Below are positions 7,331 through 60,960 of a DNA stretch of 64,000 bases, one piece after another. A program made the translations under genes and the position numbers. Origin of the DNA: Saccharopolyspora gloriosae. Its GTDB lineage: Bacteria; Actinomycetota; Actinomycetes; Mycobacteriales; Pseudonocardiaceae. The first letter of the stretch is position 1; each line of letters begins with the position of its first letter. Below the pieces are notes generated by a model. That model saw only the letters and a program-made list of their open reading frames with translations, made no database searches and was not told the origin of the DNA. Location of the stretch: contig NZ_CP059557.1 in NCBI RefSeq assembly GCF_022828475.1, positions 4,945,470 to 5,009,469 on the forward strand. The letters are read 5' to 3'.

Positions 7331-7530
7331 GTGTCCGGGTGGCGGAACCTCAGTGGCCCTCTCGCTGCGGGATCTTCTTCCCGAGTGGCTCCGACCACGA
7401 GGGAAAGGCCGTCCTCGCGAGAAGGCCACTGAGAACCCGGTGGTCGTTTTTTCGACGTGGGCTATGTGCTTCGCACATACGGGCACGGCCTTCGGCCGTT
7501 AGATTCGGCTTCGCCGTTGGCAGGACGAGC
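7331..7530 (+). repeat. Dispersed structured intergenic repeat, copy A
   Basis: Full-length copy. Arms 7349-7365 and 7417-7433 form a 17-bp outer stem (one mismatch) around an inner hairpin GTGG-N6-CCAC. Then come a conserved AACCCGGTGGTC block, a T-run, GACGTGGGC, a TATGTGC/GCACATA hairpin and a CGGCCTTCGGCCG hairpin. It lies between the convergent tnaA and cvnD genes. See copies at 13985, 18679, 23526, 58483 and 60783. Confidence 0.85.
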
Positions 7531-7589
7531 ACTTCTGAGAAAAAGAAGGGGGGTGGGCCGCTTGGCCCACCCCCTCTTCTTCCCGCCCG

Positions 7590-8153
7590 TCAGTTGTTCG
7601 CTGCGGCCAGGTCTCGCTGGTGCAGGGCGTGCTTCACCAGGGTGACCAGCACCTTCTTGCTGGAGTCCCGGTCCCGTGCGTCGCAGAACAGGATGGGGGT
7701 CTCCGGGTTCATCGCCGCGGCGCCGCGCACTTCGTCCTCGGTGTAGCTGAACTGCGTGTCCTCGAAGCAGTTCATCGCGACGACGAACGGAATCTTGCGC
7801 CGCTCGAAGAAGTCGATGGACGGGAAGCCCATCGCGAGCCGACGGGTGTCCAGCAACACCACCGCGCCGATGGCGCCGGTGGACAGCTCCGTCCACAGTG
7901 AACCGAACCGGGCCTGCCCCGGCGTGCCGAACAGGTACAGCACGATCTCCTTCGAGATCGTGATGCGCCCGAAGTCCAGCGCCACCGTGGTGGTCCGCTT
8001 CATCTCCATACCGGTGAGGTCGTCGACGCCGACGCTCGCCTCGGTCATTTCCTCTTCGGTGCTCAGCGGCGTGATCTCGCTGACCGAGCCGATGAAGGTC
8101 GTCTTGCCCACGGCGAACCCGCCCGCGACGACCAGCTTCACCGAATCGGGCAT
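7590..8153 (-). CDS. cvnD: Conservon GTPase CvnD (Ras-like ATP/GTP-binding protein)
   Basis: 187-residue small GTPase, the last gene of a conservon. The P-loop is GGFAVGKTT near the N-terminus, the switch/DxxG-equivalent is LYLFGTPGQARFG, and the base-recognition region contains VAMNCFED. The chosen ATG at 8153 lies 16 bp after the cvnC stop; a GTG one codon earlier is equally possible. In Streptomyces the CvnABCD proteins form a membrane-associated, heterotrimeric-G-protein-like complex affecting development and secondary metabolism. The signal sensed here is unknown. The gene is convergent with tnaA across repeat copy A. Confidence 0.93.
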   Translation of the reverse strand: MPDSVKLVVAGGFAVGKTTFIGSVSEITPLSTEEEMTEASVGVDDLTGMEMKRTTTVALDFGRITISKEIVLYLFGTPGQARFGSLWTELSTGAIGAVVLLDTRRLAMGFPSIDFFERRKIPFVVAMNCFEDTQFSYTEDEVRGAAAMNPETPILFCDARDRDSSKKVLVTLVKHALHQRDLAAANN

Positions 8154-8169
8154 CACGGGTGGTGCGCCG

Positions 8170-8538
8170 TCAGAGCCTGTTGAGTCCGGCAAGCACTGCC
8201 TCCAAAATGTCTCGATCGCGCGGTTGCACCATGCGGGAACGCGCAAGTGATCCGTGTTCGAGCAGGTCGGAACAGAGCACCCGGATGACGCCCAGCGGCA
8301 GGCTCAGCGATGCGGACAGTTCCGCGATCGACTGCGGAGCTCCGCACCGCTGCAGGATGGCCTCGTGCTCGGGTGTCTCCGCGGCCCCGTGGCCGGCGTC
8401 GGCCAAGGTCGCGACGACCTGGGTGGCCCGGTCAAGGCTGAGCGCCGCGTCCGGGGTGCGGCCGCCGGTCAGCGCGTACGAGCGCACCATCCGGCCGGCA
8501 TCGTCGTCGTACCACGCGTCGTTGTCGGGCGCGGTCAA
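8170..8538 (-). CDS. cvnC: Conservon protein CvnC (DUF742)
   Basis: 122-residue DUF742 protein with a winged-helix-like fold, as in all conservons. The typical pattern RSYALTGGRT near the start and the SLPLGVIRVLCSDLLEHG helix pair are present. Its ATG overlaps the cvnB stop by 4 nt (ATGA), so it is translationally coupled. It is thought to bridge the CvnA/B complex and the GTPase CvnD. The gene order B-C-D is canonical. Confidence 0.93.
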   Translation of the reverse strand: MTAPDNDAWYDDDAGRMVRSYALTGGRTPDAALSLDRATQVVATLADAGHGAAETPEHEAILQRCGAPQSIAELSASLSLPLGVIRVLCSDLLEHGSLARSRMVQPRDRDILEAVLAGLNRL

Positions 8539-8963
8539 TGCTTGTCCGCACCGACCGGGTTGCGCGCGCCCTTGCCGAGCCGCTCACCCACGTTCTTGAT
8601 CAGCCGCCGCATCTCGTATTGCAGCTGCTCGGCGTCGACGGTGCGACCCGCGACGACCAGCACCGAGTTGCGCGGGTCCACGGCCAGCACGTACATCGAC
8701 TGGGTCTCGGTGGCGAGCAGGTTCATGTCGATGTCCCCGCCCTCCAGCTCGTGGCTGAGCGCCTTGCTGGTGGCGCGCAGCGTGCCGCAGGCGGCCGAGA
8801 TCTTGTCGGCCCGGTCCTGGTCGAGGTTCTTCGAGAACGCGGCGGGCAGACCATCATGGGTGAGCACCAGGGCGTGCAACGTGTCCGGCACGTTGTCCAG
8901 CATCTGGTCGAGAAGCCAAGCCAGGTCCAGCTCCGGCTTCCGGGAGTTCATCACGTCGTTCAC
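8535..8963 (-). CDS. cvnB: Conservon protein CvnB (Roadblock/LC7 domain)
   Basis: 142-residue Roadblock/LC7 protein, a likely regulator or GTPase-activating-type partner of CvnD. The LC7 core is visible as LDQMLDNVPDTLHALVLTHDGLPAAFS, then the central helix DKISAACGTLRATSKALSHELEGG, then the strand SVLVVAGRTVD. It starts 7 bp after the cvnA stop and overlaps cvnC by 4 nt. All of this fits a single conservon transcript. Confidence 0.93.
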   Translation of the reverse strand: MNDVMNSRKPELDLAWLLDQMLDNVPDTLHALVLTHDGLPAAFSKNLDQDRADKISAACGTLRATSKALSHELEGGDIDMNLLATETQSMYVLAVDPRNSVLVVAGRTVDAEQLQYEMRRLIKNVGERLGKGARNPVGADKH

Positions 8964-8970
8964 GCTTTCC

Positions 8971-11304
8971 TCACTGCATGTCGTCGTCGGAATTGGGCTT
9001 GTCGCCTGCGTCGTCGCGCGACTTCCTGTCGGCGTTGAAGAAAGTCATCAATCCCGGTGCGAACTCAGGCTTGCTCTGCCGATCTGTCGGCTCGTCCTCA
9101 CCGAAACCGGCCGGAAGATCGGCGTAGGGAACCCGCTGCGGGAGCGGAGGTCGGTCCATGTGCTCACCTTCCGTGCTCGCGCGCGGTGCCTCGGGCTTCG
9201 GCTCCTCCTGCACGACCGGCTCGGCCACGACGGTGCCGCTCGCCGCGGACGGCACCCTGGTGGGCAGCGGCTGCGCGGGTGCGCTCGCCGACGCCACCGG
9301 GACGTCGCCGCTCCACGAGTCGCGGCGTTCCTCATCGTCTTCGGTGACCAGGTGCACCTGCGGGATGAAGATCTCGGCCCGCACGCCCTGGTAGATCGAG
9401 GTGCCGAACTCGACGACCCACTCGTTGCGCTCCGCCAGCTGGGCCACGGTGAACAGGCCGAGCTGCTCGCCTCGGTCACCGAGCCGCACCAGCGAGGCGA
9501 ACCCGGGCGGATTCTTCATCGTCTCGTTGGCGCCGTTGCGCGCATCCGGGGTCATGCCGACACCGCGGTCGGAGATCTGCACGACGAGTCCGCTGCCCAC
9601 GGACACGGCCTCCACGTGCACATCGGTGCCGGGCGGCGAGAACGAGGCGGCGTTGGCGAACAGCTCGGCGAACATGCGCAGCATGTCGCCGATCACCTGC
9701 GGGGTCACGCCGACGCTGGGCACGTGGCCCAGCCGCAACCGGTCGTGGTGCTTGGTCTCGGCGGCGGAGGCGCGCAGGATCTCGGTGAGGTCGCGCGGCC
9801 TGCTCCAGCGGCGGCCGGGTGCGGCGCCGCAGAGCACGAGCTGGTTCTCCACGACGTGCCGGGCCTGGGTGACCGACTCGTCCAGCGCGAACAGGGCACC
9901 GAGCCGGTCCGGGTCCTCCTCGTTCTGCAGCAGCGCGTCGAGTCGCTGCGGCAGCGGCCCGAGCGCGGACTGCACGCGGCGCGTCTGTCCGATGTAGAAG
10001 GTGAGGGCGCCCTGCTGGGTGTCGGCCTCGTTGATCGCCGCCTGCAGCGCTTCCTGCTGGAAGGCGCGGAACGCGTCGGCGACCTGACCGATCTCGTCGG
10101 AGCCGTAGCCCTGCAGCGCGTTGGACTCGACCTCGACCCGGTCACCGGATCGCACCCTGCGCATCATCGACGGCAGGGTCTTCTCGGCGAGTTCGCGGGC
10201 CTCGGCGCTGAGTCGCTGCAGACGGGGCAGCAGCGAGCCGTCGATGACCGAGCGGTACCGGCGACGCGTCCAGAAGAAGAAGCCCAGCGCGAACAGACCG
10301 GCCGCGATCGCACCGGCGACGGCGGTGGTGATGGCGTTGTCGCCGTTGTCCACGGCCTCGGTGGAGACCTGATCGGCCTGGTCCCGGGTGAGCGCGGTGA
10401 GTTCGCCGCCGACGGCGTCGGTGAGGCGCCGCCACTCCTCCAGCGACACTCCGGTCTCCGCCGGGTCCGACCATTCGCCCTGCTGCAGCAGCTTGTTCTC
10501 CGCGACGACCAGCTGCGCCCACTCCGGGGAGGACACCAGCCGCTCGTAGCGCGCGCGCACCGCGGGCTTCAGGTAGGAGACGTTCTTCTCCAGCTCGGTG
10601 TGGTACGACCCGTTGAGCTGGATCAGCTGGAGGTGCTGGTCCGCGGGGAGCCGACCGGTGGTGAGCGCCGTGGAGATCAGCGCCGACTCCCGCGACATCA
10701 AGTCGGTGGAGCGGAACAGCGCGGTCGCGGCGATACCGCCCTGCGAGGCGTCGGTGTCCGGCACGATGCGGGACTGGACGTCGAACAGTTCGGTCGCGAT
10801 CGTGAAGACGTTGTTGTAGTAGTCGGTGAGCTCGGGGGACGAGACCTGCCCGGCGGCCAGCCGGGAACGGATCTGCGGCAGCTTTCCGAGTTCGGTGGTC
10901 AGCTGCTCGACGGGAACGGCGATCGCGGCGGGCGCCGAGCTCAGCGCCGACTCGATCGTCCGGTTCATGTCGCCGACCGCGGCGTCGGTCCGGGCCTGCT
11001 GCTGTTGCAGCGCGGTCTGGTCGCCGCCGCCGGCGGCGAGCAGCTCCTGGCTCAGCTGGCGTTCGGTCTGCACCGCGTCGAGCGCGGTGACGGCGGGCAG
11101 CGATACCTGCCGTACACCGGACGCGATCAGCCGGGTGTAGACACCGTCGGTGATGAACGACGCACACCAGACGAGCCACAGCACCAGCACGACGATCCAG
11201 GGGATCGTGACCGCCAGCGTCAGGCTGGATCGGATGGATCTTTCCGACGTGCTCTGAGGTTCACCAGGTGGCTTGGTGACGTTGTCGGGATCTGTTGTGC
11301 TCAC
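8971..11304 (-). CDS. cvnA: Conservon sensor histidine kinase-like protein CvnA
   Basis: 777-residue membrane sensor. A short cytoplasmic N-terminus is followed by one membrane helix (about residues 27-50), an extracytoplasmic nitrate-sensor-like helical domain (about 60-320), a second helix (about 322-346), a HAMP-like region to about 410, and a HATPase domain around 520-640 with the N box near FANAASFSPPGTDVHV and the G box SDRGVGM. A long Pro/Ala-rich tail follows. No clear phosphoacceptor H-box is evident, as is usual for CvnA. It is the first gene of the operon; the promoter should lie within 11305-11870. Confidence 0.92.
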   Translation of the reverse strand: MSTTDPDNVTKPPGEPQSTSERSIRSSLTLAVTIPWIVVLVLWLVWCASFITDGVYTRLIASGVRQVSLPAVTALDAVQTERQLSQELLAAGGGDQTALQQQQARTDAAVGDMNRTIESALSSAPAAIAVPVEQLTTELGKLPQIRSRLAAGQVSSPELTDYYNNVFTIATELFDVQSRIVPDTDASQGGIAATALFRSTDLMSRESALISTALTTGRLPADQHLQLIQLNGSYHTELEKNVSYLKPAVRARYERLVSSPEWAQLVVAENKLLQQGEWSDPAETGVSLEEWRRLTDAVGGELTALTRDQADQVSTEAVDNGDNAITTAVAGAIAAGLFALGFFFWTRRRYRSVIDGSLLPRLQRLSAEARELAEKTLPSMMRRVRSGDRVEVESNALQGYGSDEIGQVADAFRAFQQEALQAAINEADTQQGALTFYIGQTRRVQSALGPLPQRLDALLQNEEDPDRLGALFALDESVTQARHVVENQLVLCGAAPGRRWSRPRDLTEILRASAAETKHHDRLRLGHVPSVGVTPQVIGDMLRMFAELFANAASFSPPGTDVHVEAVSVGSGLVVQISDRGVGMTPDARNGANETMKNPPGFASLVRLGDRGEQLGLFTVAQLAERNEWVVEFGTSIYQGVRAEIFIPQVHLVTEDDEERRDSWSGDVPVASASAPAQPLPTRVPSAASGTVVAEPVVQEEPKPEAPRASTEGEHMDRPPLPQRVPYADLPAGFGEDEPTDRQSKPEFAPGLMTFFNADRKSRDDAGDKPNSDDDMQ

Positions 11305-11867
11305 AGCGCTCCACGTTGTCGGTCATCTGACGTGGTGTGTTGAGGAGGCATGCGTGTCCCTGCGGGCGCGGCCTGAGGCGCCGGACTCGTCCCACCGGCT
11401 GAAATCAGGCAGGAGGTCTCGCCGTTAGATGGCCTGAACAGGCGTCTTCCCGGGGACACGGCTCCTTCCGCACACCGTCGTCTTCCGCTCGTGCCGAGCA
11501 TGAGCGGAAGTGCAATTCCCCCCTGCGCGAGGCACTTTATCGGAAGATGATCAGTGCGTCGGCGATCGGCCCCAGAGTGGTTCGCCGCGTCCACGACGAC
11601 GCACGTCACGGAGTGTTTTCACTTGTGAGCACAGCGAAAACAACGTGACCGAGGCAACGTGCGCGACAGCTGCGGGAACGTGGACCCGGGACCACCGGAA
11701 CCAGCGAGACCACGCTGCGACCATCCGTGACCGACAAGCACGGATGGTCGCGCGCCGAAAAGCTCGGCAAATGACCGCCGAATGCGGGCACAGATCCTCG
11801 GCCACCTGCGCGGTTCGATTTCTACGTTCCGGTCAACGGAATCCGACCCGATTTTTCGGGCGCTCGA
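11305..11867. other. Intergenic region upstream of cvnA, no gene seen
   Basis: About 560 bp. Open frames here have no good start or family resemblance. It should contain the cvnA promoter, which I cannot place with confidence. Confidence 0.4.
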
Positions 11868-12325
11868 TCACCGGGCCGCGGGGCGGTCCGCCGGGGCGTG
11901 CGGCCACCTGGCGAGCGGCTGCGGATCGGCGGTTCGGGCCGCCGTCGCGAGGCATCCGTCCGGCCGCACCAGCGGCAGCCCCGGCCACGCCGCGAGATCG
12001 CGGACGGTCGCTGAATCGGTTCCGCGCAGCGCGGGCCGTTCGGCTGCGATCTCCACGTGGCGCACGGTGAGCACCCCCGCGCCACGGCCCGGAACCGATC
12101 GCTCAGCACGGCCGAATGGGCGACCGGGCCGCAGAGCGCGAGCGTGAACCGGGCCGGGTCGAACATGTCGTGCGGCCGCTCGGTCTCCGTCCGGTCGCAC
12201 CAACGGAGACCGGGATCACCTCGGACCATCCGCGGCGCTGCGCGGGACTGCTCGGCGTCTTCCTCATCGGGCTCGCCACCGACCGCTACGTACCGGCCGA
12301 CCCCGCCGTCGCGGATCTGGGCCAC
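11868..12325 (-). pseudogene. Remnant of FAD-dependent aromatic monooxygenase C-terminus (frameshifted)
   Basis: Two overlapping minus-strand frames together read like the C-terminal thioredoxin-like domain of large flavin monooxygenases. The first frame gives FDPARFTLALCGPVAHSAVL; after a frame change near 12080 the second gives VRHVEIAAERPALRG and LPLVRPDGCLA, resembling the LVRPD(G/Q)xVAW ending of this family. The FAD-binding domain is missing. It is inferred to be a decayed gene. The resemblance is by eye and modest. Confidence 0.4.
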
Positions 12326-12465
12326 GACGAGCTCATCGCTCGGGCCGCACCGGTCGTCCGCCGAGATCCTGACCGGGCCGTGCCCAGGCGTACCCGCAGA
12401 ATGAGCTGCGCAGGTGCCGGGGACGGAACCTCAACCGGTTCCGCCCCGACAAGGCACAGGAAAGA

Positions 12466-13482: not shown

Positions 13483-13610
13483 GGAGTTCGCTTTCGTGGA
13501 GATGAGCTGACCACCGGACGCATTCCCGGCTCTCACTCATCTTCAACCGGCCGGGCACTCCGGAGGATCGGTCATCCGGTCACGCTCCCCGGCCGTTCAG
13601 CCGAATTGGC

Positions 13611-13814: not shown

Positions 13815-13984
13815 ATCCCGCCCCAGTAATCGTTCCAGTACGAGCCACACCATGATCTTGCCAACGCCGACGGCAAACCCGATCTCACGACGACGAAGCC
13901 CGCAAAGGGCTGAGAAGCAAGCCTGCCTTACGACCGAAAGGCCGCGCCTTCCGGCGAAGCCGACTCCTTACGGCGAAGCCGACT

Positions 13985-14163
13985 CCTTGCGGCCGAAGGC
14001 CGTGCCTGGATGCGCGTCAGCGCATAGCCCACGTCACAAAGCCGACAACCGGCGGGTTCTCAGTTGGTCTCTCGCGAGGACAGCTTTTTCCCTCGTGGCG
14101 GAGCCACTTGGGAAAAAGATCCCGCAGCGAGAGACCAACTGAGGTTCCGCCACCCGACCACCA
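13985..14163 (-). repeat. Dispersed structured intergenic repeat, copy B
   Basis: Full-length copy in minus orientation. Outer arms 14059-14075 and 14127-14143 pair perfectly over 17 bp with a sequence different from copies A and F. The inner hairpin pairs TTTTTCCC with GGGAAAAA. The second module shows TATGCGC/GCGCATA and a CGGCCTTCGGCCG hairpin. A partial duplication of the GGCTTCGCCG end unit extends to about 13950. It lies between the SPFH and ribbon-helix-helix genes. Confidence 0.85.
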
Positions 14164-14185
14164 AAGCAGAACGAGCCGCACAACC

Positions 14186-15103
14186 TCAGTGATACAACGA
14201 ACCGGTATTGACGACCGGTTGGGTGTCGCCGCAGAGGACGACTAACAGGTTGCTGACCATCGCCGCCTTGCGTTCCTCGTCGAGTTCGACGACTTCCCGT
14301 TCGGACAGCCGCTGCAGCGCGAGGTCGACCATGCCGACGGCACCTTCGACGATCCGCTGCCGCGCGGCCACCACGGCACCGGCCTGCTGCCGCTGCAGCA
14401 TGGCTTGGGCGATCTCGGGGGCGTAGGCGAGGTGGGTCAGCCTGGATTCGATCACGTCGACGCCTGCCGCTTCGACGCGTGCCGTGATCTCGGCGGAGAG
14501 CTTGCCGGTGATCTCGTCGGCGTTCTCCCGCAGTGAGAACGGGTGCTCGTCATCGCTGTCGTAGGGGTAGCTGGTGGCGATGTGGCGCACCGCGGTCTCG
14601 GTCTGGGTTTCCACGAATTCCACGAAGCTGTCCACCGCGAACGAGGCTTGCGCGGTGTCGGCGACCTGCCAGACGACGACGGCGGCGATCTCGATCGGGC
14701 TGCCGCCGGAGTCGTTGACCTTCATGACGGCGGTCTCGTGGTTGCGGATCCGGGTGGAGACCTTCGTCTTGGAGCTGAACGGGTTCACCCAGTGCAGTCC
14801 TGTTGGGCGCACGGTTCCGGTGTAGCGGCCGAGGAATTGCAGCACTCGGGCTTCACCGGGTGCGACGGCGACGAGCCCGCCGGAGAGCAGCAGTCCGGCG
14901 ACCACCAGCACGCCCCCGACGATGATCGGCACGGCGATCTCCCCGGCGAGTCCGATCGTGAGCACCACTCCCCCGCCGATGACGAGCAGCAGCGCGAGCC
15001 CTGCCATCGGCATTCCCGACAGCCGGAAGCTCTCCCGTTCCTCGACCGGCGATTCCGGCATCCGGATCTTTTCGCGTTCCCGCGTGTCCACTTGAGCGGT
15101 CAT
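14186..15103 (-). CDS. SPFH/band-7 domain membrane protein
   Basis: 305-residue protein. A cytoplasmic N-terminus of about 25 residues precedes two adjacent hydrophobic segments (about residues 30-75), then the SPFH/prohibitin domain with [20 protein letters not shown] and [14 protein letters not shown], then a helical region [25 protein letters not shown] typical of flotillin/stomatin proteins. It probably organises membrane microdomains or a protease or stress complex; the exact role is unknown. The ATG at 15103 follows GGGGGCGCC; a GTG at 15139 is also in frame. An inverted repeat lies 40 bp upstream. Confidence 0.85.
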
Positions 15104-15142
15104 GGCGCCCCCTGCGCGTAGTGATCGTTCAACTTTCACAAC

Positions 15143-16739: not shown

Positions 16740-17579
16740 GTGCAGCGGACACCGGCCGGGCTGGTCATCGCCGTCACGGGCGCCGCCAGAGGAATCGGGC
16801 GCGAGATCGCCCGCGAACTGGCCGCGGCGGGCGCCCGCGTCGCCGTCGGCGACCGCGACCTGGAAGCCGCCGTCGACACCGCGCGACAACTGCCCGGTGA
16901 TGTCGCCGCGTTCGCAGTCGACGTCACCGACACCGCCTCGTTCACCGCGTTCCTGGAGGCCGTCGAGGAACGCTGGGCGCCCATCGACGTGCTGGTCAAC
17001 AACGCGGGCGTGATGTGGGTCGGGCCGTTCGACGAGGAACCGGACAGCGCCGCGCGGCGCCAAGTGGACGTCAACCTGCTCGGCGTCATCCGCGGCGTGC
17101 GGCTCGCCGCGCCCGCCATGCGCGCCCGCGGTCGCGGCCAGATCGTCACCGTCGCCTCCGGAGCCGCGAAGCTCGCGCCCGCGGGAGAAGCCACGTACGC
17201 GGCCACCAAGCACGCCGTGTACGGCTACCTCAACGCCGTGCGCACCGAACTGCACGGCAGCGGCGTCCAGCTCTCGGTGGTGCTGCCCGGTGTGGTGGAG
17301 ACCGAACTCGCCGCCGGAACCGCCACCGGGCCGGTGCGCAGGCTCGCCCCCGCCGAGGTCGCGCAAGCCGTGCTCGCCGTCATCCGGCGACCGCGCTTCG
17401 AAATCACCCTGCCCCGCCGCTTGAACTTCGGCGCGCGGATGGCGGCGCTACTGCCCGACCCGGCCCGTTTCCTCTTGCTGCGCGCCGTGGTGCCGAACCA
17501 GGTCCTGGCCGACAAGAACGCCCGACGCACCTACGAGAACCGTGCCGTGAGCGGCACAGAGGGGGCCTCCGAACAATGA
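16740..17579 (+). CDS. Short-chain dehydrogenase/reductase
   Basis: 279-residue SDR oxidoreductase. The cofactor motif TGAARGIG is at residues 14-21, followed by NNAGV, the catalytic serine in VTVASGAAK, and YAATK (Tyr and Lys of the YxxxK pair). The C-terminal part beyond residue 230 is somewhat extended and contains RFLLLRAVVPNQVL, perhaps membrane-associated. The GTG start follows AGGGGAGGA. The stop overlaps the ATG of the next gene (ATGA), so the two are translationally coupled. Substrate unknown; probably a lipid-like or hydrophobic alcohol/ketone (inference). Confidence 0.87.
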   Translation: MQRTPAGLVIAVTGAARGIGREIARELAAAGARVAVGDRDLEAAVDTARQLPGDVAAFAVDVTDTASFTAFLEAVEERWAPIDVLVNNAGVMWVGPFDEEPDSAARRQVDVNLLGVIRGVRLAAPAMRARGRGQIVTVASGAAKLAPAGEATYAATKHAVYGYLNAVRTELHGSGVQLSVVLPGVVETELAAGTATGPVRRLAPAEVAQAVLAVIRRPRFEITLPRRLNFGARMAALLPDPARFLLLRAVVPNQVLADKNARRTYENRAVSGTEGASEQ

Positions 17580-18691
17580 CAGCGAACGTGGACGCGCACC
17601 TGGTCCGCCCGATCCCCGAATTCGAGGGCGTGCACGACATCTGGCCGCGCGGCAAGCGCCTGGACGCGGTACGCGAGGCGGCCCGGTCCTACCGCGAACG
17701 ATTCATCGAACAGGGCACGATCAAAGGGATCCGCAGCATCGACATCGCGGCGGCGCCCTACCCCTCCCGATACGCTTTCCAGGGCTACAACCTCTCGGTC
17801 AATCCGGTCATCTCGATCATCAACCGGATGTTCGTGATCCAGTTCGAGGGCTTCGACGGCGAACTCAAGACGCTCGTGTGGGAACCGACCGTCGCGGCAG
17901 GCTCCGCCGAAGCGCCGTTCTACGGCAAGCTCCAGAGGATGGCGGGCGATTTCCTGTCCGACAAGGTCTTCGCCAAGTACTACAACGACCCGGACACCGT
18001 GCTGCCCGGCCTCGGCCTGAGCAACGACGACGTCGACTACGTCAGCTTCGACCACCTGCACGTCCAGGACGTCCGGATGATCATGGGCAGCGACCGGGTC
18101 ATCCCCGGCGAGCGGACACCGCGCGAACCGCTGTTCCCCAACGGCAAACTCCTCGTGCACCGCAAGGAACTCGGCACCTTCGAGTCACCGCACCCGATGC
18201 AGTGGGCCTGGTACGTCGACGGCGGCATGGACGGAGTTCCCGCCGAGCGGCTCGAAGTCTTCGACGGCGACGTCGAACTCGGCATCGGTGTCAGTCTGCT
18301 GTGGACGCCCGGACACACCGATGGCAACCACTCCCTGTTCGTGAACACCCCCGACGGCGTGTGGGTCTCCTCCGAGAACGGCATGGCCGCAGACAGCTGG
18401 CAGCCCGAACTGTCCAAGATCCCCGGCGTGAAGCAGCAGGCGCGGTTCTTCAACCGGGAAGTGGTGCTCAACGCCAACACCCTCGAAGACTCGCTCGACC
18501 AGTACGACTCGATGGTCAAGGAGAAGACCATGGCGTCGCGCTCGCCGAAGGACTCCCGGTGGCTGCAGATCATCCCGTCCTCGGAATGCGCCCCTTGGAA
18601 GCGGCAATGGCCGGTGGTCCCGACCCACACCCACGGCGGCCTCGATTACGGGATCATCCGCCGGTCAGGGCCTTCGGAGGTGGCCGGGTAG
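17576..18691 (+). CDS. Metallo-beta-lactamase-fold hydrolase
   Basis: 371-residue protein with an MBL-fold core. The metal motif is HLHVQD (about residue 160) and a later metal strand is LLWTPGHTDGNHSLFV. The first motif departs from the usual HxHxDH, so activity may be unusual. It is coupled to the SDR by a 4-nt overlap. The last codons run into repeat copy C, which supplies the stop codon (GTGGCCGGGTAG). The natural C-terminus may therefore have been altered by arrival of the repeat. Substrate unknown. Confidence 0.75.
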   Translation: MTANVDAHLVRPIPEFEGVHDIWPRGKRLDAVREAARSYRERFIEQGTIKGIRSIDIAAAPYPSRYAFQGYNLSVNPVISIINRMFVIQFEGFDGELKTLVWEPTVAAGSAEAPFYGKLQRMAGDFLSDKVFAKYYNDPDTVLPGLGLSNDDVDYVSFDHLHVQDVRMIMGSDRVIPGERTPREPLFPNGKLLVHRKELGTFESPHPMQWAWYVDGGMDGVPAERLEVFDGDVELGIGVSLLWTPGHTDGNHSLFVNTPDGVWVSSENGMAADSWQPELSKIPGVKQQARFFNREVVLNANTLEDSLDQYDSMVKEKTMASRSPKDSRWLQIIPSSECAPWKRQWPVVPTHTHGGLDYGIIRRSGPSEVAG

Positions 18692-18840
18692 CGGAGCCTC
18701 GGTTGCTTCCTCGCCACGGGATCATCTTCCCGAGTGGCTCCACCACGGAAGTGCTGTCCTCGCGAGGAAGCAGCCGGTGGTCACCTTCTTGACGTGAGCA
18801 GTGCGCGTACGCGCGTCCAAGCGCGGCTTCCCGCAGAGCA
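18679..18840 (+). repeat. Dispersed structured intergenic repeat, copy C (degenerate)
   Basis: A diverged copy. Left arm 18698-18714 (CTCGGTTGCTTCCTCGC) still pairs with 18762-18776, but the conserved CTGAGAACCCG block after the right arm is partly deleted. The inner hairpin GTGG-CTCC-ACCAC and the GACGTGAGCA block remain. It overlaps the 3' end of the MBL gene and lies in the convergent gap to the MftD-like gene. Confidence 0.75.
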
Positions 18841-21493: not shown

Positions 21494-22876
21494 ATGTCCC
21501 CCACCAGCAATGGCGCTGCGCCAGGACACTACCGGCCGGACATCGTCCGCAAGATCAAACTCCGGATCGTCCCCTTCCTCGCCGTCCTTTACATCATCGC
21601 GTTCATCGACCGTGCCAACGTCGGCTACGCCGCGCTAGGCATGAACAGCGACCTCGGCATCACCGCCGTGCAGTTCGGCTTCATCGCCGGGCTGTTCTCC
21701 ATCGGATACTTCGCCTTCGAGGTGCCCAGCAACATGCTGATGCGCCGAGTCGGCGCCCGGCGCTGGATCGCCCGCATCCTGTTCAGCTGGGGCTTGGTGG
21801 CGGTGCTGACCGGCCTGGTCCAGAACGTCACCCAGCTTGCGATCGCCCGCACGCTGCTCGGCATCGCCGAAGCCGGCTTCTTCCCCTGCGTGCTGCTCTA
21901 CCTCAGCCAGTGGTTCCCGGAACGCGAGCGCGCCCGCGTGGTCGCCCAGTTCATGGTCGCCCTCCCCGTGGCCACGCTGATCGCCGGACCGCTGTCCGGG
22001 CTGATCCTCGACCACGTCCACTGGCTCGACCTGGCCAGCTGGCGCTGGGTGTTCATCCTCGAAGGCATGCCCGCCGTCCTGCTCGGCGTGATCACCCTGT
22101 TCGTGCTGGTCGACGCACCTTCCCAAGCTCAGTGGTTGAGCGCGGCGGAAAAGCGGTGGCTCACCGACACCCTGGAGCGGGAGAACGCCGCCAAAAACGC
22201 CCGCCACCGACAGCCCGGGTTCTGGCGCAGCCTGCTCGGCGCACGGGTACTCGCCCTGTCGCTGATCTACTACAGCAAGTCCGTCGCGATCTACGTTTTG
22301 GCGTTCTTCACCCCGCAGATCGTCCAAGGCCTCGGGCAGAACCTGAGCCACTCCACGGTGGGCGTGCTCTCCGCGCTGCCCTACGGTGCCGCGGCCGTGG
22401 TCATGGTCTGGTGGGCGCGACACTCCGACCGCACCCGCGAACGCCGTTGGCACGTGGCGGTTCCACTGTTCGTCTGCGCCGCCGGGTTGTGCGCCATGCC
22501 GTTCGCCGAAGGCAGCCTCGTCACCTCCCTGCTGTTGCTGACCGTCGTCACCGTCGCCGTCTACGCGACATACGGGCCGTTCTGGTCACTGCCCTCGCTG
22601 TTCCTCACCGGCCCCGCCGTTGCGGTCGGGCTGGCCTCGATCAACTCGATCGCCAACCTCGGCGGGTTCGTCGGCCCGTTCGGGTTCGGTGCGCTCGAAA
22701 CCGCAACCGGAGACATCACCGCCGGGCTCGCGCTCGTCGCCATCGTCCTGGTCATCTCCGGCGTGCTCGTGGTGCGACTGCGCTTCGTCCGCGACGCCGA
22801 AGCCGCCTTGCGACCCGACGACGCCCGGCACGACCCGCACCGCACCGATCCGGCGCTGCAGAAGGAGATCCCATGA
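21494..22876 (+). CDS. MFS transporter, anion:cation symporter (ACS) family
   Basis: 460-residue permease with about twelve membrane helices in two sixes separated by a cytoplasmic loop (about residues 205-245). ACS family signatures are FIDRANVGYAALGM in helix 1 and GLFSIGYFAFEVPSNMLM in helix 2. Family members import organic anions such as phthalate, 4-hydroxyphenylacetate or sugar acids by proton symport. Its stop overlaps the start of the RraA-like gene (ATGA), tying the imported substrate to that aldolase. Confidence 0.87.
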   Translation: MSPTSNGAAPGHYRPDIVRKIKLRIVPFLAVLYIIAFIDRANVGYAALGMNSDLGITAVQFGFIAGLFSIGYFAFEVPSNMLMRRVGARRWIARILFSWGLVAVLTGLVQNVTQLAIARTLLGIAEAGFFPCVLLYLSQWFPERERARVVAQFMVALPVATLIAGPLSGLILDHVHWLDLASWRWVFILEGMPAVLLGVITLFVLVDAPSQAQWLSAAEKRWLTDTLERENAAKNARHRQPGFWRSLLGARVLALSLIYYSKSVAIYVLAFFTPQIVQGLGQNLSHSTVGVLSALPYGAAAVVMVWWARHSDRTRERRWHVAVPLFVCAAGLCAMPFAEGSLVTSLLLLTVVTVAVYATYGPFWSLPSLFLTGPAVAVGLASINSIANLGGFVGPFGFGALETATGDITAGLALVAIVLVISGVLVVRLRFVRDAEAALRPDDARHDPHRTDPALQKEIP

Positions 22877-23496
22877 CCACGACCCCGGAACAACTCGCAC
22901 GCCTTGCCGCTCTCGGCACTGCCACCGTCTACGAGGCCAACGGGCAGACAGGAGCCTTCGATTCCGGGCTCAAGCCCCTCGACCCGGGCAGCCGGATGGC
23001 CGGACGCGCCGTGACGCTGGACCTCCCACCGGCCGACAACTGGTACGTGCACCTCGCCGTGCTGCAAGCAGGCCCCGGCGACGTCCTCGTCGTCGACGCG
23101 AAGGGCTACCTCGAAGCCGGCCCCTGGGGCGACGTGCTCACCTGCGCGGCCCAGCAACGCGGCCTCGCCGGGCTCGTCATCGACGGAGCGGTCCGCGACA
23201 GCCGCGACATCATCGATTCCGGCTTCCCGGTGTTCACCCGCGGGCTGTCCATCAAAGGCACCAGCAAATCCGTACCGGGTCGGATCAACGTTCCGGTCCA
23301 CGTCGGCGGAGTCACCGTCGAACCCGGCGACGTCGTGCTCGGCGACGCCGATGGACTCGTTCGGGTCCCCGCAGCCGAGATCGGGCAAGCCCTGCGAGCA
23401 TCCGAGTCGCGCCAGGCCAAGGAAAACGGCTTCCGCGAACGCCTCCGCATCGGCGCCACCACCCTCGAACTGCTCGGCCTGGCCGATCCGCGCTGA
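22873..23496 (+). CDS. RraA-like / HMG aldolase family protein (oxaloacetate decarboxylase-aldolase fold)
   Basis: 207-residue protein of the RraA/demethylmenaquinone methyltransferase-like fold. The active-site signature AGPGDVLVVDAKG...GPWGDVL, followed by GLAGLVIDGAVRDS, carries the Gly-rich loop and the Arg-Asp pair used by 4-hydroxy-4-methyl-2-oxoglutarate / 4-carboxy-4-hydroxy-2-oxoadipate aldolases. In this context an aldolase making pyruvate is more likely than an RNase E regulator. It is translationally coupled to the MFS gene. Repeat copy D follows. Confidence 0.82.
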   Translation: MTTTPEQLARLAALGTATVYEANGQTGAFDSGLKPLDPGSRMAGRAVTLDLPPADNWYVHLAVLQAGPGDVLVVDAKGYLEAGPWGDVLTCAAQQRGLAGLVIDGAVRDSRDIIDSGFPVFTRGLSIKGTSKSVPGRINVPVHVGGVTVEPGDVVLGDADGLVRVPAAEIGQALRASESRQAKENGFRERLRIGATTLELLGLADPR

Positions 23497-23525
23497 GGAC
23501 TTCTTTCCGGAATGGCCTGCTTTGT

Positions 23526-23652
23526 GGTCGGGTGGCGGAACCTCAGTGAGCCTCTCGCTGAGAATCCGCCGGTGGTCGCTTTTTTGACGTGGGCTATGTG
23601 CTTCGCACATACAGGCACGGCTGCGCCGCAAAGATTCGGCTTCGCCGCTGAC
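23526..23652 (+). repeat. Dispersed structured intergenic repeat, copy D (short form)
   Basis: The flanks (GGTGGCGGAACCTCAG and CCGGTGGTCGC-T6-GACGTGGGC) and the TATGTGC/GCACATA hairpin are intact. The inner hairpin and most of the outer stem are deleted, leaving a small CTCAGTGAG/CTCGCTGAG hairpin. It lies between the RraA-like and GntR genes. Confidence 0.8.
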
Positions 23653-35564: not shown

Positions 35565-35698
35565 GCCGCCATTGTTCGCCTTCGCACGCCCCCGTCCCAA
35601 AGTGCGGGACGCGGCGGTGGTGCTCCTGTGGCTCCGGTTCAGCTGTGAGGCGAGGCTGGCGACCCCGTGTTCACGGAGGACGAACGCGGGGCGCGGGT

Positions 35699-35724
35699 GG
35701 AATGGGCGAGCCCCGCGACCTGTT
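35699..35724 (+). promoter_or_regulatory. Sigma-R/SigH-type promoter upstream of clpC
   Basis: GGAAT, exactly 18 nt, then GTT, the consensus of the actinobacterial thiol-oxidative/heat stress sigma factors SigR (Streptomyces) and SigH (mycobacteria). It ends 55 nt before the clpC ATG, giving a leader of about 45-50 nt. Confidence 0.6.
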
Positions 35725-35779
35725 GAGCGGGGGGTCGAACGAGAGACGAAGTCGACCGCGCAGCGGTCAGGGAGTGCGA

Positions 35780-38143
<2,364 letters not shown>

Positions 38144-53074: not shown

Positions 53075-53179
53075 GCCGCGGCAGGCGCGGCCGGGCATCA
53101 ACGCCGATCGCCCGGCCGCATCGCCGACCCGCCGCCGAGCGCCGTTCGTTCGCGCACCTTCCAACGATGTGAGGAACGC

Positions 53180-55122: not shown

Positions 55123-55142
55123 TGCCCGGACGGGAGAGCCAG

Positions 55143-55922: not shown

Positions 55923-55947
55923 CCCGCTCACGACCCCGGAGGAACAC

Positions 55948-57603: not shown

Positions 57604-58073
57604 GCGCCGCCATGTCCGACATCCGCAGGCGACTCGCCGAACTGTCCCTGGAACTGCCGGTGCTCGGCCCGCCGAAGTACGCCTACGAGCCCGCCGTGCT
57701 GTCCGGGGAGCTGCTGCACGTCTCCGGCCAGATCTCCCGCACACCCGCGGGGGAGGTCCTCGGCGGCCGCCTGGGCGACGACGCGGACGTGCGCGCCGGC
57801 GTGACCGCCGCGAGGGTCTGCGCGCTGAACCTGCTGGCGCGCGTCGACGACGCGGTCGGTTTGGAGAACGTCGTGCGGGTGCTCAAGCTCAACGCCTGGG
57901 TGACGAGCACCCCGCACGCGATCGACCAGCCGGAAGTGGTCGACGGGGCCTCGCAGCTGTTGATCGACGTGCTCGGCGACGCCGGTCGGCACGCCCGGAC
58001 CGCCCTGCCCGCGCCGATCCTGCCGCAGGGCGCGCTGGTCGAGATCGACGCGACGGTGTCAGTCCGCACCTGA
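57600..58073 (+). CDS. RidA-family (YjgF/YER057c) protein
   Basis: 157 residues: LLHVSGQISRTPAGEVLGGR, AARVCALNLLARVDDAVGLE, VVRVLKLNAWVTSTP, and the C-terminal HARTALPAPILPQGALVEID with the Arg that binds the imine carboxylate. RidA proteins hydrolyse reactive enamines/imines. The GTG overlaps the M24 stop (GTGA). Presence at the end of this operon suggests the pathway forms an imine. A strong terminator follows. Confidence 0.88.
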   Translation: MSAAMSDIRRRLAELSLELPVLGPPKYAYEPAVLSGELLHVSGQISRTPAGEVLGGRLGDDADVRAGVTAARVCALNLLARVDDAVGLENVVRVLKLNAWVTSTPHAIDQPEVVDGASQLLIDVLGDAGRHARTALPAPILPQGALVEIDATVSVRT

Positions 58074-58078
58074 CGAAC

Positions 58079-58118
58079 ACGGGCCATCACGTGGCGACCG
58101 TGTCACGTGATGGCCCGT
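58079..58118 (+). terminator. Terminator of the ABC/M24/RidA operon
   Basis: ACGGGCCATCACGTG (58079-58093) pairs with CACGTGATGGCCCGT (58104-58118), a 15-bp perfect stem with a 10-nt loop, 5 nt after the RidA stop. Confidence 0.8.
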
Positions 58119-58187
58119 TGAGAAGGGGACGGGGCGACCTCGCACCTGTGTGCGGGGCCGCCCCGTTGGGTGGCAAGTACCTGCTGA

Positions 58188-58304
58188 TCAGGTCTCGTTG
58201 AACAGCAAACGGAACACGAGGTTGATGAGCACGCTCGTCACCACGCGAACTGCAAACCGCTCAGCGAACTTCTTGCGCTTGGGCCTGTTCTCCTCGTCGG
58301 CCAT
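58188..58304 (-). CDS. 38-residue basic/amphipathic small protein
   Basis: A short gene with a good ribosome site (AAGGGGCAGGG) before its ATG. It encodes an acidic start MADEENR, a basic KRKKFAERFAVRV stretch, and a hydrophobic C-terminal helix TSVLINLVFRLLFNET, then TGA. It looks like a membrane-associated amphipathic peptide; no family recognised. It lies on its own between the operon terminator and repeat copy E. Confidence 0.6.
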   Translation of the reverse strand: MADEENRPKRKKFAERFAVRVVTSVLINLVFRLLFNET

Positions 58305-58482
58305 GACCCTGCCCCTTCCACCGTGGGCTCAACCGAGCCCGAGGCCCCGGACCATTTCGGTCCGCGTCGCCCCACATCTGGTGCAGAGACACTGCTCGCA
58401 GTATGGGGTCCTTTCAGAATGATCTTGTGATCGTTGTCCTGTCAGCGGCGGAGCCGCTGAGCAGTGACCAGCTCGAGCAAGA

Positions 58483-58600
58483 TGACCACCGGCGGGTTCT
58501 CAGCGGCTTCCTCGCGAGGACAGCGATTTCGTGGTGTATGGACATACATGAGAAATCGATCCCGCAGCGAGGAAGCCGCTGAGGTTCCGCTGAGCGACCA
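58483..58600 (-). repeat. Dispersed structured intergenic repeat, copy E
   Basis: Outer arms 58499-58515 and 58567-58583 pair perfectly (CTCAGCGGCTTCCTCGC), again a different sequence from other copies. The inner hairpin is replaced by an unrelated one (GATTTC/GAAATC with TGTATG/CATACA). The GACGTGGGC/TATGxxx module is absent. It lies upstream of the 38-codon gene and downstream of peptidase E. Confidence 0.82.
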
Positions 58601-58671
58601 GCTACGCAGGCCATTCTGAAAGGGCTTTTAAGTCGCCGGGGTCGGAACGGCTCCAGGGCCGATCAGGTGGT

Positions 58672-59400
58672 TCAGCAGAGGTCGTAGCGGGGTGTGGTGC
58701 GCAGCAGGCCGGAGAGATCGGTGCCCGGGGCGAGGTCGTGCGCCGGTCCACGGCGGGTGAACATGCGGGTCTGCTGAGTGCCGCCCAGCTCGGCGCGCTG
58801 GTCGCGGACCCGCAGCCAAGCGCCCTCGCGGAGCCCGAGGACGGGGACGTCGTTGTGCTCCAGGAACTCGGTGAGGCGTTCGTCGCGGGTCTCGCCGCGG
58901 TGCGTGCTCGCCGGGTCGGGCGGCTGGTAGTGCGGGTTGATCTGGAAGGGCACCAATCCGAGCGCGGCGAACGAGGCTGGCTGCACGATCGGCATGTCGT
59001 TGCTGGTCCGCAGGCTCGGGCAGGCCACGTTGGTGCCCGCGCTGGAACCCAGGTAGGGAACTCCGGCGAGCACCGCGCGCCGCAGCTCCCGGATGAGCCC
59101 CTGGCGTTGCAGCGTCGCGAGCAGGCGGAACGTGTTGCCGCCACCGAGGAACACGGCCTCGGCCGCCGCGATGGCGCGCACCGGGTCGGCGGCGCGGTGC
59201 AGTCCGTCGACCTTGATGCCGATGGAGCTCAGCACCGAATGCACGGTGCGCGCGTAGTCGTCGAAGTCGCGGCGGGCGTAGGGCACGAACAGCATGCGTT
59301 CCCGGCCTGCCATCAGTTCCGTGATCGCGGGCAGCGCGTGCCCCAGGAAACCGGGCGACCCGTGCACTCGCGAACTCGACAGCAGGAGCAGCTGCACCAC
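58672..59400 (-). CDS. pepE: Peptidase E (alpha-aspartyl dipeptidase, S51)
   Basis: 242 residues. The catalytic Ser is in YLGSSAGTNVACP; EAVFLGGGNTFRLL, VQPASFAALGLVPFQINPHY and HRGETRDERLTEFL are the usual S51 segments supplying the Glu/His residues. It cleaves Asp-X dipeptides in the cytoplasm. The GTG start follows GGGAGAG. It is divergent from lhgO (86 bp). Confidence 0.9.
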   Translation of the reverse strand: MVQLLLLSSSRVHGSPGFLGHALPAITELMAGRERMLFVPYARRDFDDYARTVHSVLSSIGIKVDGLHRAADPVRAIAAAEAVFLGGGNTFRLLATLQRQGLIRELRRAVLAGVPYLGSSAGTNVACPSLRTSNDMPIVQPASFAALGLVPFQINPHYQPPDPASTHRGETRDERLTEFLEHNDVPVLGLREGAWLRVRDQRAELGGTQQTRMFTRRGPAHDLAPGTDLSGLLRTTPRYDLC

Positions 59401-59486
59401 GGCTCTCCCTCCCCGCGCCCGTGGACCGCAGCGAACCCTACCGTCGGCGCTGGAACGGGTGGGCCGGGACGGGCAGGATGACCGGC

Positions 59487-60686
59487 ATGGCCGAAGACGA
59501 CGTGACGATCATCGGCGGCGGCATCGTGGGCTTGGCGACGGCGCACGCGCTGCTGCGAGCGGGCACCGGCAGGCGGATCACGGTCCTGGAGAAGGAAACC
59601 TCGGTGGGGGCGCACCAGACCGGTCACAACTCCGGAGTCCTCCACAGTGGACTCTATTACCCGCCGGGCAGCGCGAAGGCCCGGTTCGCGCGGGCCGGAG
59701 CGGAGGAGATGTACCGGTTCTGCGAGGAGCACGGCGTCCCCGTCCGGCGCATCGGGAAGCTCGTCGTGGCGACCCGGCCCGAGCAGCTGCCACGACTGGC
59801 CGAACTCGCCCGGCGCGGCGCGGCCAACGGCGTTCGACTGTCCGAACTGGACGATTCGGGGATCGCCGAGCGGGAACCTCGGGTTCGCGGCTTGCGGGCA
59901 CTGCTGGTGCCGGATGCGGGCATCACGGATTTCGGCGAAGTGTGCCGAGTGCTCGCCGAACGGCTGGCCGAGCAGGACGTGCGGGTGCTGCGGGGCACCG
60001 AGCTGCTCGCCGCTCGGCGGGACGGGGATCGGCTGGTGCTCACCACCACGACCGGCGAGATCCGCACCCGGCTGGCGGTGAACTGCGCGGGACTGCACAG
60101 CGACACCGTGGCCGAACTCGCCGGGACCCGGCCCGCCGCGCGGATCCTGCCGTTCCGCGGCGAGTACTACGAGACGACTCCGGCCCGCCACGACCTGGTG
60201 CGCGCCCTGGTGTATCCGGTGCCCGATCCGGCGTTCCCGTTCCTCGGCGTGCACTTCACGCGCATGATCGACGGCGGACTGCACGTGGGTCCGAACGCGG
60301 TCCCGGCGCTGGCCCGCGAAGGCTACGACTGGCGAACCTGGTCCGCCTCGCACCTGCGGCGACTGCTCGGCGACCCCGGACTGCGTTCACTGGCGAAGCG
60401 CTACTGGCGCACCGGCGCGGCGGAGATCGCGCGCTCCGCCGCGAAACCGCTGTTCGTCCGAGCCGCACGCGAACTGCTGCCGCAGCTGCGCGGCGCCGAC
60501 CTGGTGCCCGCCGCAGCGGGCGTCCGAGCACAGGCAGTGCGCCCGGACGGCACCCTCGTAGACGACTTCCTGGTGCACGAGGACGAACGCTGGATCCACG
60601 TCCTCAATGCCCCGTCCCCGGCCGCAACAGCCTCACTGCGCATCGGCACCGACATCGCCGAACGAGTGACCACCCACCTCAGCTGA
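59487..60686 (+). CDS. lhgO: L-2-hydroxyglutarate oxidase-like FAD oxidoreductase
   Basis: 399 residues of the D-amino-acid-oxidase/LhgO superfamily. FAD motif VTIIGGGIVGLATAHALLRAG, then KETSVGAHQTGHNSGVLHSG (the HNSGVxH signature of L-2-hydroxyglutarate oxidases), LYYPPGSAKARF, and RGEYYET. The C-terminus VLNAPSPAATASLRIGTDIA is complete. It oxidises L-2-hydroxyglutarate to 2-oxoglutarate. ATG 59487 has AGGATG upstream; ATG 59478 is alternative. Confidence 0.88.
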   Translation: MAEDDVTIIGGGIVGLATAHALLRAGTGRRITVLEKETSVGAHQTGHNSGVLHSGLYYPPGSAKARFARAGAEEMYRFCEEHGVPVRRIGKLVVATRPEQLPRLAELARRGAANGVRLSELDDSGIAEREPRVRGLRALLVPDAGITDFGEVCRVLAERLAEQDVRVLRGTELLAARRDGDRLVLTTTTGEIRTRLAVNCAGLHSDTVAELAGTRPAARILPFRGEYYETTPARHDLVRALVYPVPDPAFPFLGVHFTRMIDGGLHVGPNAVPALAREGYDWRTWSASHLRRLLGDPGLRSLAKRYWRTGAAEIARSAAKPLFVRAARELLPQLRGADLVPAAAGVRAQAVRPDGTLVDDFLVHEDERWIHVLNAPSPAATASLRIGTDIAERVTTHLS

Positions 60687-60782
60687 AAACGACCACACCG
60701 CCCGCCGGCGCGAAGCACATCGGTTCATCAGCGGCAGCACCCATGCTTTCCAACGAAGCCGCCCCTGCGGCGATAGCCGAAT

Positions 60783-60960
60783 CCGTACGGCCGAAGGCCG
60801 TGCTTGTATGCGCGTCAGCGCATAACCCACGTCGAGAAGGTGACCACCGGCGGGTTCTCAGTGGCCTTCTCGCGAGGACGGCTTTTTCCCTCGTGGCGGA
60901 GCCACCAGGGAAAAAGATCCCGCAGCGAGAAGGCCACTGAGGTTCCGCTACCCGACCACC
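60783..60960 (-). repeat. Dispersed structured intergenic repeat, copy F
   Basis: Full-length copy in minus orientation. Arms 60857-60873 and 60925-60941 pair perfectly over 17 bp; the inner hairpin pairs TTTTTCCC/GGGAAAAA; the TATGCGC/GCGCATA and CGGCCGAAGGCCG hairpins are present. It lies between the convergent lhgO and holin-like genes. Confidence 0.87.

What the first reader, a model, noticed from the sequence alone, without database searches (positions are those of the whole stretch)
7331..60960. A six-copy intergenic repeat whose long stem is kept by compensatory changes
Copies at 7331, 13985, 18679, 23526, 58483 and 60783 share flanks (GGTGGCGGAACCTCAG ... CTGAGAACCCGCCGGTGGTC). The 17-bp stem between them differs: GTGGCCTTC core in A and F, GTTGGTCTC in B, GTTGCTTCC in C, GCGGCTTCC in E. 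In B, E and F both arms changed together so pairing stays perfect; A has one mismatch and C is partial. A second hairpin also covaries (TATGTGC/GCACATA against TATGCGC/GCGCATA). This is strong evidence that an RNA or cruciform structure, not the sequence, is selected. The copies lie in gaps, three between convergent genes, which fits a transposable terminator or REP/MITE-like element.
Basis: seen in the sequence. Interest (0 to 1): 0.75.

Follow-up and report, generated by a model that had tools for sequence, protein, structure and literature searches.

The report
Hairpin repeats behind gene stop codons
Several hundred copies of a long hairpin-forming repeat sit mostly just after the ends of genes in a Saccharopolyspora-like bacterium and its relatives; their stems change sequence freely but stay paired, which points to a REP-like mobile repeat whose moving machinery is not known.

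Summary
A 1.2 Mb sample of the genome, taken by position, holds 71 copies (about 400 if extrapolated). The family occurs in 52 of 200 genomes and 13 of 46 genera of the host family, apparently Pseudonocardiaceae. No Rfam 15 family matches.

Stem covariation exceeds a tree-based null: 5 of 2145 column pairs were significant, all five in the stem.

Of 71 copies, 49 start 5-45 nt after a stop codon in its sense. A similar spacing recurs in other genera (mode near 37 nt to GCGGAAC).

Outside the window's species group, imperfect pairs are mostly A-C on the gene-sense strand (95 against 10 G-U in distinct stems), meaning G-U on the complementary strand. Together with the tail loops, this suggests the complementary single strand is the kept fold. 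T-tracts are rare there, so a plain terminator fits poorly.

Sites turn over between species; the stem differs at 8 of 9 shared sites. A GTRG tag at the stem foot (214 of 254 copies) resembles REP elements, but no Y1 (REP-type) transposase was found in this genome. Best reading: a REP/REPIN-like non-autonomous element with an unknown mover.

The parts
7331..7450 (+). copy A, hairpin core (stem block TGGCCCT/TGGCCTT, one C-A mismatch); starts 18 nt after the stop codon of ORF 5939-7312; tail hairpins to about 7520
14042..14161 (-). copy B, hairpin core (TTGGTCT, perfect); 24 nt after the stop codon of the minus-strand ORF 14186-15139; tail about 13950-14041
18680..18787 (+). copy C, eroded core (TTGCTTC; right arm loses CTGAG); the TAG inside GGGTAG is the stop codon of the called gene (ORF 17015-18691)
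23524..23579 (+). copy D, hairpin deleted between short CTG words, both feet kept; 27 nt after the stop of ORF 21910-23496; tail to about 23650
58482..58601 (-). copy E, other subfamily (CGGCTTC, different apical stem, perfect arms); 70 nt from the nearest stop codon in its sense (ORF 58672-59400)
60840..60959 (-). copy F, hairpin core (TGGCCTT, perfect); 23 nt after the stop codon of minus-strand ORF 60983-61516; tail about 60760-60839

Best explanation
This is a REP/REPIN-like, non-autonomous dispersed DNA element of the Pseudonocardiaceae. One unit is a short lead, a hairpin of about 100 nt with a GT(A/G)G tag at its 5' foot, and one or more small C(GNA)G-loop hairpins behind it. New copies arise from a few active subfamilies and settle, or survive, just behind stop codons at the ends of transcription units, mostly in one orientation. 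Shown: copy number, spread, spacing, orientation, covariation, site turnover and subfamily structure. Inferred: the form under selection is a folded single strand, probably single-stranded DNA complementary to the mRNA strand during copying or insertion; the arms therefore stay paired while the seven base pairs of the middle block drift; and an enzyme other than a Y1/RAYT transposase moves it. Once in place the hairpin may also act as a 3'-end barrier for the gene in front; that is not shown.
For: High copy number with a few repeated stem classes (TTGGTCT 21, CTGTCTT 16, TGAGCCT 15 of 91 copies). Turnover: of orthologous genes, 9 carry a copy in both G000 and G001, 11 only in G000, 4 only in G001, 246 in neither; against G003 it is 1, 16, 8, 221. 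At 8 of 9 shared sites the stem block differs. Position: 49 of 71 copies start 5-45 nt after a stop; the spacing (mode near 37 nt to GCGGAAC) recurs outside the species group. Covariation with a pairing-blind filter. Strand polarity outside the group: distinct stems AC 95, GU 10, other 33 (97, 11, 33); tree events 46 against 11. Of 309 perfect tail triloops, 262 read C(TNC)G on the sense strand, i.e. C(GNA)G on the other, 1 reads the opposite way and 46 are other loops. GTRG foot tag 214 of 254, as in REPs (table seen). Copy B as query: no phage or plasmid match.
Against: No moving enzyme was found: no Y1 match in G000, no reverse transcriptase match in G000, no integron integrase above cut-off in 25 genomes (whose 14 controls also had none above cut-off). 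The two strand cues disagree: the GTRG tag sits on the sense strand while wobble and tail loops favour the other. Inside the window's own species group the wobble polarity is absent or reversed (tree events W>U 25, W>A 15, P = 0.15; distinct stems GU 29, AC 17), and apical stems show none outside (22 GU, 21 AC) and a sense-strand lean inside (26 GU, 14 AC). The tight spacing to stop codons is easier to explain by a role in the host than by mobility alone. No clean empty/filled junction or target duplication could be defined because intergenic sequence had diverged.
Confidence: 0.5

Rival explanations
1. A dispersed transcription terminator or mRNA 3'-end stabiliser: the sense-strand RNA hairpin ends or protects the transcript of the gene in front, and good copies were duplicated and kept for that job.
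For: Start 5-45 nt after the stop codon in 49 of 71 copies, 29 of 36 tandem copies in the gene's sense (P = 0.0003), convergent gaps enriched and divergent gaps avoided. Orthologs of the host genes that lack the copy are mostly unit ends: 15 of 16 in G003 and 11 of 11 in G001, against 217 of 320 and 236 of 326 other genes. T runs of 4 or more after the stem in 37% of 126 copies of the species group. A pattern scan of 17.5 kb terminator-like sites (shuffles 7.5 +- 2.8); 4 of them lie in copies A and B, all on the sense strand. Inside the species group wobble leans to the sense strand.
Against: T runs in only 2% of 130 copies outside that group; wobble pairs there are on the other strand; 22 of 71 copies are off position yet score no worse (P = 0.27). 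Whether empty sites hold a native hairpin that the copy replaced is mixed: against gaps under 20 nt, P = 0.53 in G003 and 0.013 in G001.
Confidence: 0.28
2. The arms stay complementary by a mutational process (hairpin-templated correction or template switching at replication), without selection for the structure in each copy.
For: Variation is concentrated in 7 pairs; off-position copies keep good hairpins; single-arm mutations (14 of 91) and two chimeras of arms exist and are rare, as if mended or lost.
Against: The AAC/AAC mismatch loop, invariant in the 22 copies of alignment A3 and kept in most copies of other genera printed, would itself be corrected; a strong strand polarity of wobble pairs outside the group is not expected of correction in double-stranded DNA.
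Confidence: 0.13
3. A structured antisense RNA transcribed across the gene end from the complementary strand.
For: G-U polarity outside the species group and GNA loops on the complementary strand.
Against: In 29 of 36 tandem gaps neither neighbouring gene reads in that direction; no sigma-70-like promoter in the 17.5 kb scanned, though that scan does not cover other actinobacterial promoters.
Confidence: 0.07
4. A folded-bottom-strand recombination site like an integron attC site.
For: Hairpin behind the stop codon; outside the species group the folded strand appears to be the one complementary to the gene.
Against: No match above the TIGR02249 cut-off in 25 of 25 genomes, only weaker tyrosine-recombinase matches; the 14 control genomes had none above it either. 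The core reads AAC on both sides instead of AAC and GTT (attC anatomy recalled).
Confidence: 0.02

Closest known systems
REPINs / REP elements with RAYT (TnpA-REP) transposases
   Same: Hundreds of extragenic palindromic copies, conserved ends with a hairpin between, compensatory changes in the hairpin (passage of PMC3116915), GTAG/GTGG tag at the foot (table in PMC2817692), subfamilies.
   Different: Hairpin of about 100 nt with a single tag instead of two inverted short REPs; mostly one orientation and a narrow spacing after stop codons; no Y1 match in this genome; an actinobacterial family; wobble polarity outside the species group on the untagged strand.
DNA uptake sequence inverted pairs used as terminators
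   Same: Closely spaced complementary copies forming terminator hairpins (passage of PMC2267715).
   Different: No short fixed uptake word; the stem sequence varies. Natural transformation was not looked for here.
Integron attC sites
   Same: Conserved structure with variable sequence and a bottom-strand fold (folded bottom strand: passage of PMC8876359; the rest recalled).
   Different: No integrase match above cut-off, no cassettes seen, different core triplets.

Membership tests
REP/REPIN with RAYT | extragenic palindromes in high copy number | tested here: met
   71 copies in 1.2 Mb, 70 of them placed and each of these between called genes; called genes reach 3-12 nt into the element in 4 cases
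REP/REPIN with RAYT | GTAG or GTGG tetranucleotide at the 5' foot of the hairpin | tested here: met
   214 of 254 copies chosen by anchor words (110 of 125 in the species group, 104 of 129 outside); the last G of the tag is paired; 214 of 256 with the earlier filter
REP/REPIN with RAYT | two inverted REPs, each with its tag (REPIN) | tested here: not met
   the commonest feet on the other strand are CCGG, CCCG and GCCG; GTRG is not among the ten commonest listed
REP/REPIN with RAYT | a Y1 (RAYT) transposase in the genome, often flanked by the repeats | tested here: not met
   0 PF01797 matches in G000, 5 of 14 controls ring; 5 of 13 bearing and 1 of 12 non-bearing genomes have one; the three loci fetched look like IS200/IS605 TnpA by reading, and R1 finds no copy in their 10 kb
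intrinsic transcription terminator | hairpin followed by a U-tract | tested here: not met
   as a family feature: 2% of 130 copies outside and 37% of 126 inside the species group have a run of 4 or more T in 22 nt; copy A itself has one and the scan calls it
intrinsic transcription terminator | RNA 3' ends at the hairpin | not testable with these tools
   needs RNA 3'-end mapping
integron attC | integron integrase in the genome | tested here: inconclusive
   0 of 25 genomes above cut-off, but 0 of 14 controls above it too, so no positive control
IS91-like (Y2) mobile element | Y2 transposase | tested here: inconclusive
   0 of 25, but the control rang nowhere
known Rfam RNA family | match to a curated model | tested here: not met
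   only tRNAs in the window at gathering scores; one chance hit at E = 4.5 for copy B

The most novel reading that the evidence does not exclude
A mobile element that travels as single-stranded DNA folded on the strand complementary to the mRNA and is installed at sites of transcription termination, where the opposite strand is open, by machinery other than the known Y1 transposases. That one step would explain the narrow spacing behind stop codons, the orientation, the wobble polarity outside the species group and the exchange of stems at shared sites.
Probability: 0.15. Interest if true: 0.85.

Novelty: new variant of a known kind. Interest (0 to 1): 0.6.

Why it matters
It would be a REP-like element without a REP transposase in its host, found in 13 of 46 sampled genera of one actinobacterial family, with a rule of placement (narrow distance and sense after stop codons) that none of the passages I read describe for REPs. 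Its exchange of stems at orthologous sites gives natural replicates for asking whether pairing, sequence or strand is selected.

Tried and rejected
Rejected: stems conserved only by descent (null). Disfavoured: plain cruciform in double-stranded DNA outside the species group, since both strands would then show equal G-T tolerance; inside the group this is not excluded. No Y1 or reverse-transcriptase match in this genome; across 25 genomes reverse transcriptases occur in 2 of 13 bearing and 6 of 12 non-bearing ones. The Y2 and integron-integrase searches lack a positive control. I looked for a mover among genes between neighbouring copies by reading translations, without a family search: by eye they are mostly ordinary housekeeping or metabolic genes, one pair (4828949-4833461) encloses what looks like an IS3-type transposase (recalled resemblance), and I saw no recurrent gene. 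The idea that copies replaced native terminators gave a mixed answer. Apical-stem wobble showed no clear polarity. Element orientation against replication showed no strong bias by eye in five blocks (no test made).

Limits. Gene calls are from my own simple codon-usage caller. Two filters were used on 333 fuzzy matches: one on pairing (256 kept; used), and, on review, one on anchor words only (254 kept). The second gave the same covariation and polarity, with 1 of 254 copies below 12 Watson-Crick pairs. One search dropped right-arm blocks seen fewer than three times; one search repeats it with no rows dropped and the linkage contrast is smaller when all 79 copies are used. Among the 130 copies outside the species group, 44 came from loci of the same pattern scan that the listing did not name. 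The model alignments contain opposite-strand duplicates; one search counts pairs on one of these and is not used. The background gap lengths include the elements themselves. Three of the nine shared sites are weak cases: two G000 copies are decayed and one pair differs in few bases.

Literature. Searches listed no paper that I recognised as describing this element; subscription journals are mostly absent from that library. Papers seen only as passages: PMC4686876, PMC2817692, PMC2267715, PMC3733652, PMC3116915, PMC6006769, PMC8876359; the others only as search listings with the start of the abstract. Details of attC and IS200 anatomy beyond those passages are recalled.
Full report
The window lies in a 6.88 Mb single-contig genome. 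Its genus is most likely Saccharopolyspora: relative G002 has a contig of 304,762 bases, the length of NZ_JAPFGB010000008.1 of Saccharopolyspora sp. NFXS83, and G002 is of the same genus as the window. This is inferred from a length match, not from a marker gene.

Observation. All six copies exist. The core is one long hairpin, minimum free energy -80.6 kcal/mol for copy B against -46.6 +- 4.1 for shuffles. From the base: a GCGG/CCGC foot, an AAC/AAC mismatch loop, CTCAG/CTGAG, a block of seven variable pairs, CTCGC/GCGAG, a conserved asymmetric loop, and an apical stem. Copy D has lost the hairpin between two CTG words; copy C has an eroded right arm.

Extent. In 1.2 Mb of stretches chosen by position it finds 126 matches, of which 71 are distinct after removal of opposite-strand duplicates: 30 in 400 kb and 16, 13, 9 and 3 in four blocks of 200 kb. 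That extrapolates to about 400 copies. In the family, 52 of 200 genomes and 13 of 46 genera have matches, with filters that lose weak ones; among 60 relatives the 24 genomes of other families of the order have none. Copy B matches no plasmid or phage record. No Rfam family matches.

Covariation. I compared G-test scores with average-product correction to a null of 60 alignments that redistributes the substitutions on a FastTree tree with column rates kept. On 168 distinct cores chosen by anchor words alone (598 substitutions), five of 2145 column pairs reach E <= 0.05 and all five are stem pairs (6, 7, 11, 12, 15); four further stem pairs lie between 0.28 and 0.67 and eight are weak or nearly invariant. 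The earlier run on 170 cores filtered on pairing gave the same five. This is modelled on R-scape but is not R-scape. Among 91 G000 copies found by anchors, 73 have perfect 7-bp blocks, 14 one mismatch, 1 two, 2 four and 1 five. The two with four are chimeras or near-chimeras in which each arm resembles a different class (L010: TTGGTCT with CTGTCTT; another: GTGTCTT with TTGGTCT). In 61 copies of the six commonest left blocks, the right block is linked at V = 0.95 (null 0.36), a site 13 nt upstream at 0.62, the apex at 0.49, a tail site at 0.74, and three others at 0.33-0.37 near their nulls; on all 79 filtered copies the figures are 0.88 against 0.63-0.74 (one search is the first version with rare blocks dropped). 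These sets were filtered on pairing, so the contrast is only supporting evidence.

Placement. Of 70 placed copies, 36 lie in tandem gaps, 31 in convergent gaps and 3 in divergent gaps. Given the share of gap bases, convergent gaps are enriched (P = 2.5e-8) and divergent ones avoided (P = 4e-7); 29 of 36 tandem copies read in the gene's sense. The core starts 5-45 nt after a stop codon in 49 of 71. In a separate test with a simple reading-frame criterion on the 227 filtered copies with enough flank, 73 of 114 copies of the species group and 65 of 113 of other genera have a gene end 10-60 nt before GCGGAAC, with the mode near 34-37 nt in both; on the other side 0 and 13 do. Stop codon type is not special: 41 TGA, 6 TAG, 2 TAA at element genes against 800, 99, 38 elsewhere.

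Turnover. Between G000 and G001 (median protein identity 93%), orthologous genes carry a copy in both in 9 cases, only in G000 in 11, only in G001 in 4, and in neither in 246 (P = 5.6e-9); against G003 (90%) the figures are 1, 16, 8 and 221 (P = 0.48). So many sites are shared by the close pair and almost none by the more distant one. At 8 of the 9 shared sites the stem block differs, while lead, core and tail are slightly more alike than in random pairs (P about 0.02-0.03). Two of these eight are decayed in G000 and one differs little. Conversion between copies or independent insertion at the same gene ends could both produce this.

Strand. For the 91 distinct arm pairs outside the species group with the anchor-only filter, imperfect pairs on the gene-sense strand are 95 A-C, 10 G-U and 33 other (97, 11 and 33 in 92 arm pairs with the pairing filter). 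On a tree the changes away from Watson-Crick are 46 to A-C, 11 to G-U and 20 to other, and 23 A-C pairs return to Watson-Crick. A-C on one strand is G-U (G-T) on the other, so the complementary strand appears to be the one whose folding is kept. In the window's own species group this does not hold (15 A-C, 25 G-U events; P = 0.15). Many A-C pairs are inherited (position 9 above all), so the event counts are the fairer figure. Tail hairpins point the same way in both groups: of 309 perfect triloop hairpins, 262 read C(TNC)G on the sense strand, 1 C(GNA)G and 46 something else; C(TNC)G is C(GNA)G on the complementary strand. GNA loops make DNA mini-hairpins of unusual stability (passage of PMC4686876). 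Against this, the GT(A/G)G tag at the stem foot, present in 214 of 254 copies, is on the sense strand; in REP elements the tag stands at the 5' end of the repeat (table in PMC2817692). I cannot reconcile the two cues.

What moves it. G000 has no Y1 match and no reverse transcriptase match. Y1 genes occur in 5 of 13 bearing and 1 of 12 non-bearing genomes; the three loci fetched look like IS200/IS605 genes by reading and R1 finds no copy in them. No integron integrase exceeds its cut-off in 25 genomes, but no control genome does either. A Y2 search found nothing and its control was silent.

Function in place. Position and sense suggest a role at transcript ends, and host genes are unit ends (15 of 16 and 11 of 11 orthologs without a copy are convergent or have gaps of 50 nt or more, against 217 of 320 and 236 of 326 others). 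A pattern scan calls four terminator-like sites inside copies A and B on their sense strands, of 12 in 17.5 kb. But T runs are almost absent outside the species group (2%) and 22 off-position copies score no worse than the others (P = 0.27). So selection by the host is not shown.

Verdict. The repeat is real, structured and widespread in its family. It is closest to REP/REPIN elements, in which compensatory hairpin changes are also reported (passage of PMC3116915), but does not show two of their features (paired tags, a RAYT). I file it as a new variant of a known kind with an unknown mover.

Noticed in passing
L010 (G000:C1:5960288-5960477): A copy whose left arm is of class TTGGTCT and right arm of class CTGTCTT, as if two copies had recombined; a reciprocal partner would mark a chromosomal rearrangement.
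   Followed up: partly
window 18680-18691; also G000 423828, 3026325, 4928447: By my gene calls, genes end 3-12 nt inside the element (in copy C at its internal TAG), so the repeat seems to supply their stop codon.
   Followed up: partly
G000 blocks, last 10 codons of genes before a copy: GC at third positions is lower in genes followed by a copy (0.765 of 540 codons) than in others (0.832 of 8130), with smaller differences in G001 and G003; no test allowing for gene-to-gene dependence was made.
   Followed up: partly
tails behind the cores in the window's species group, e.g. window 13950-14041: Runs of small hairpins form arrays of varying length behind many copies; the tails of other genera printed mostly show a single small hairpin.
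   Followed up: partly
G000 3000001-3200000: Only 3 copies in 200 kb here against 9-16 per 200 kb in the other blocks, so the repeat may be thin near the presumed terminus.
   Followed up: no
window 35791-36195: Two 70% identical 177-nt direct repeats inside a long plus-strand frame (35645-38143), perhaps an internal domain repeat of a Clp-type protein (recalled resemblance).
   Followed up: no
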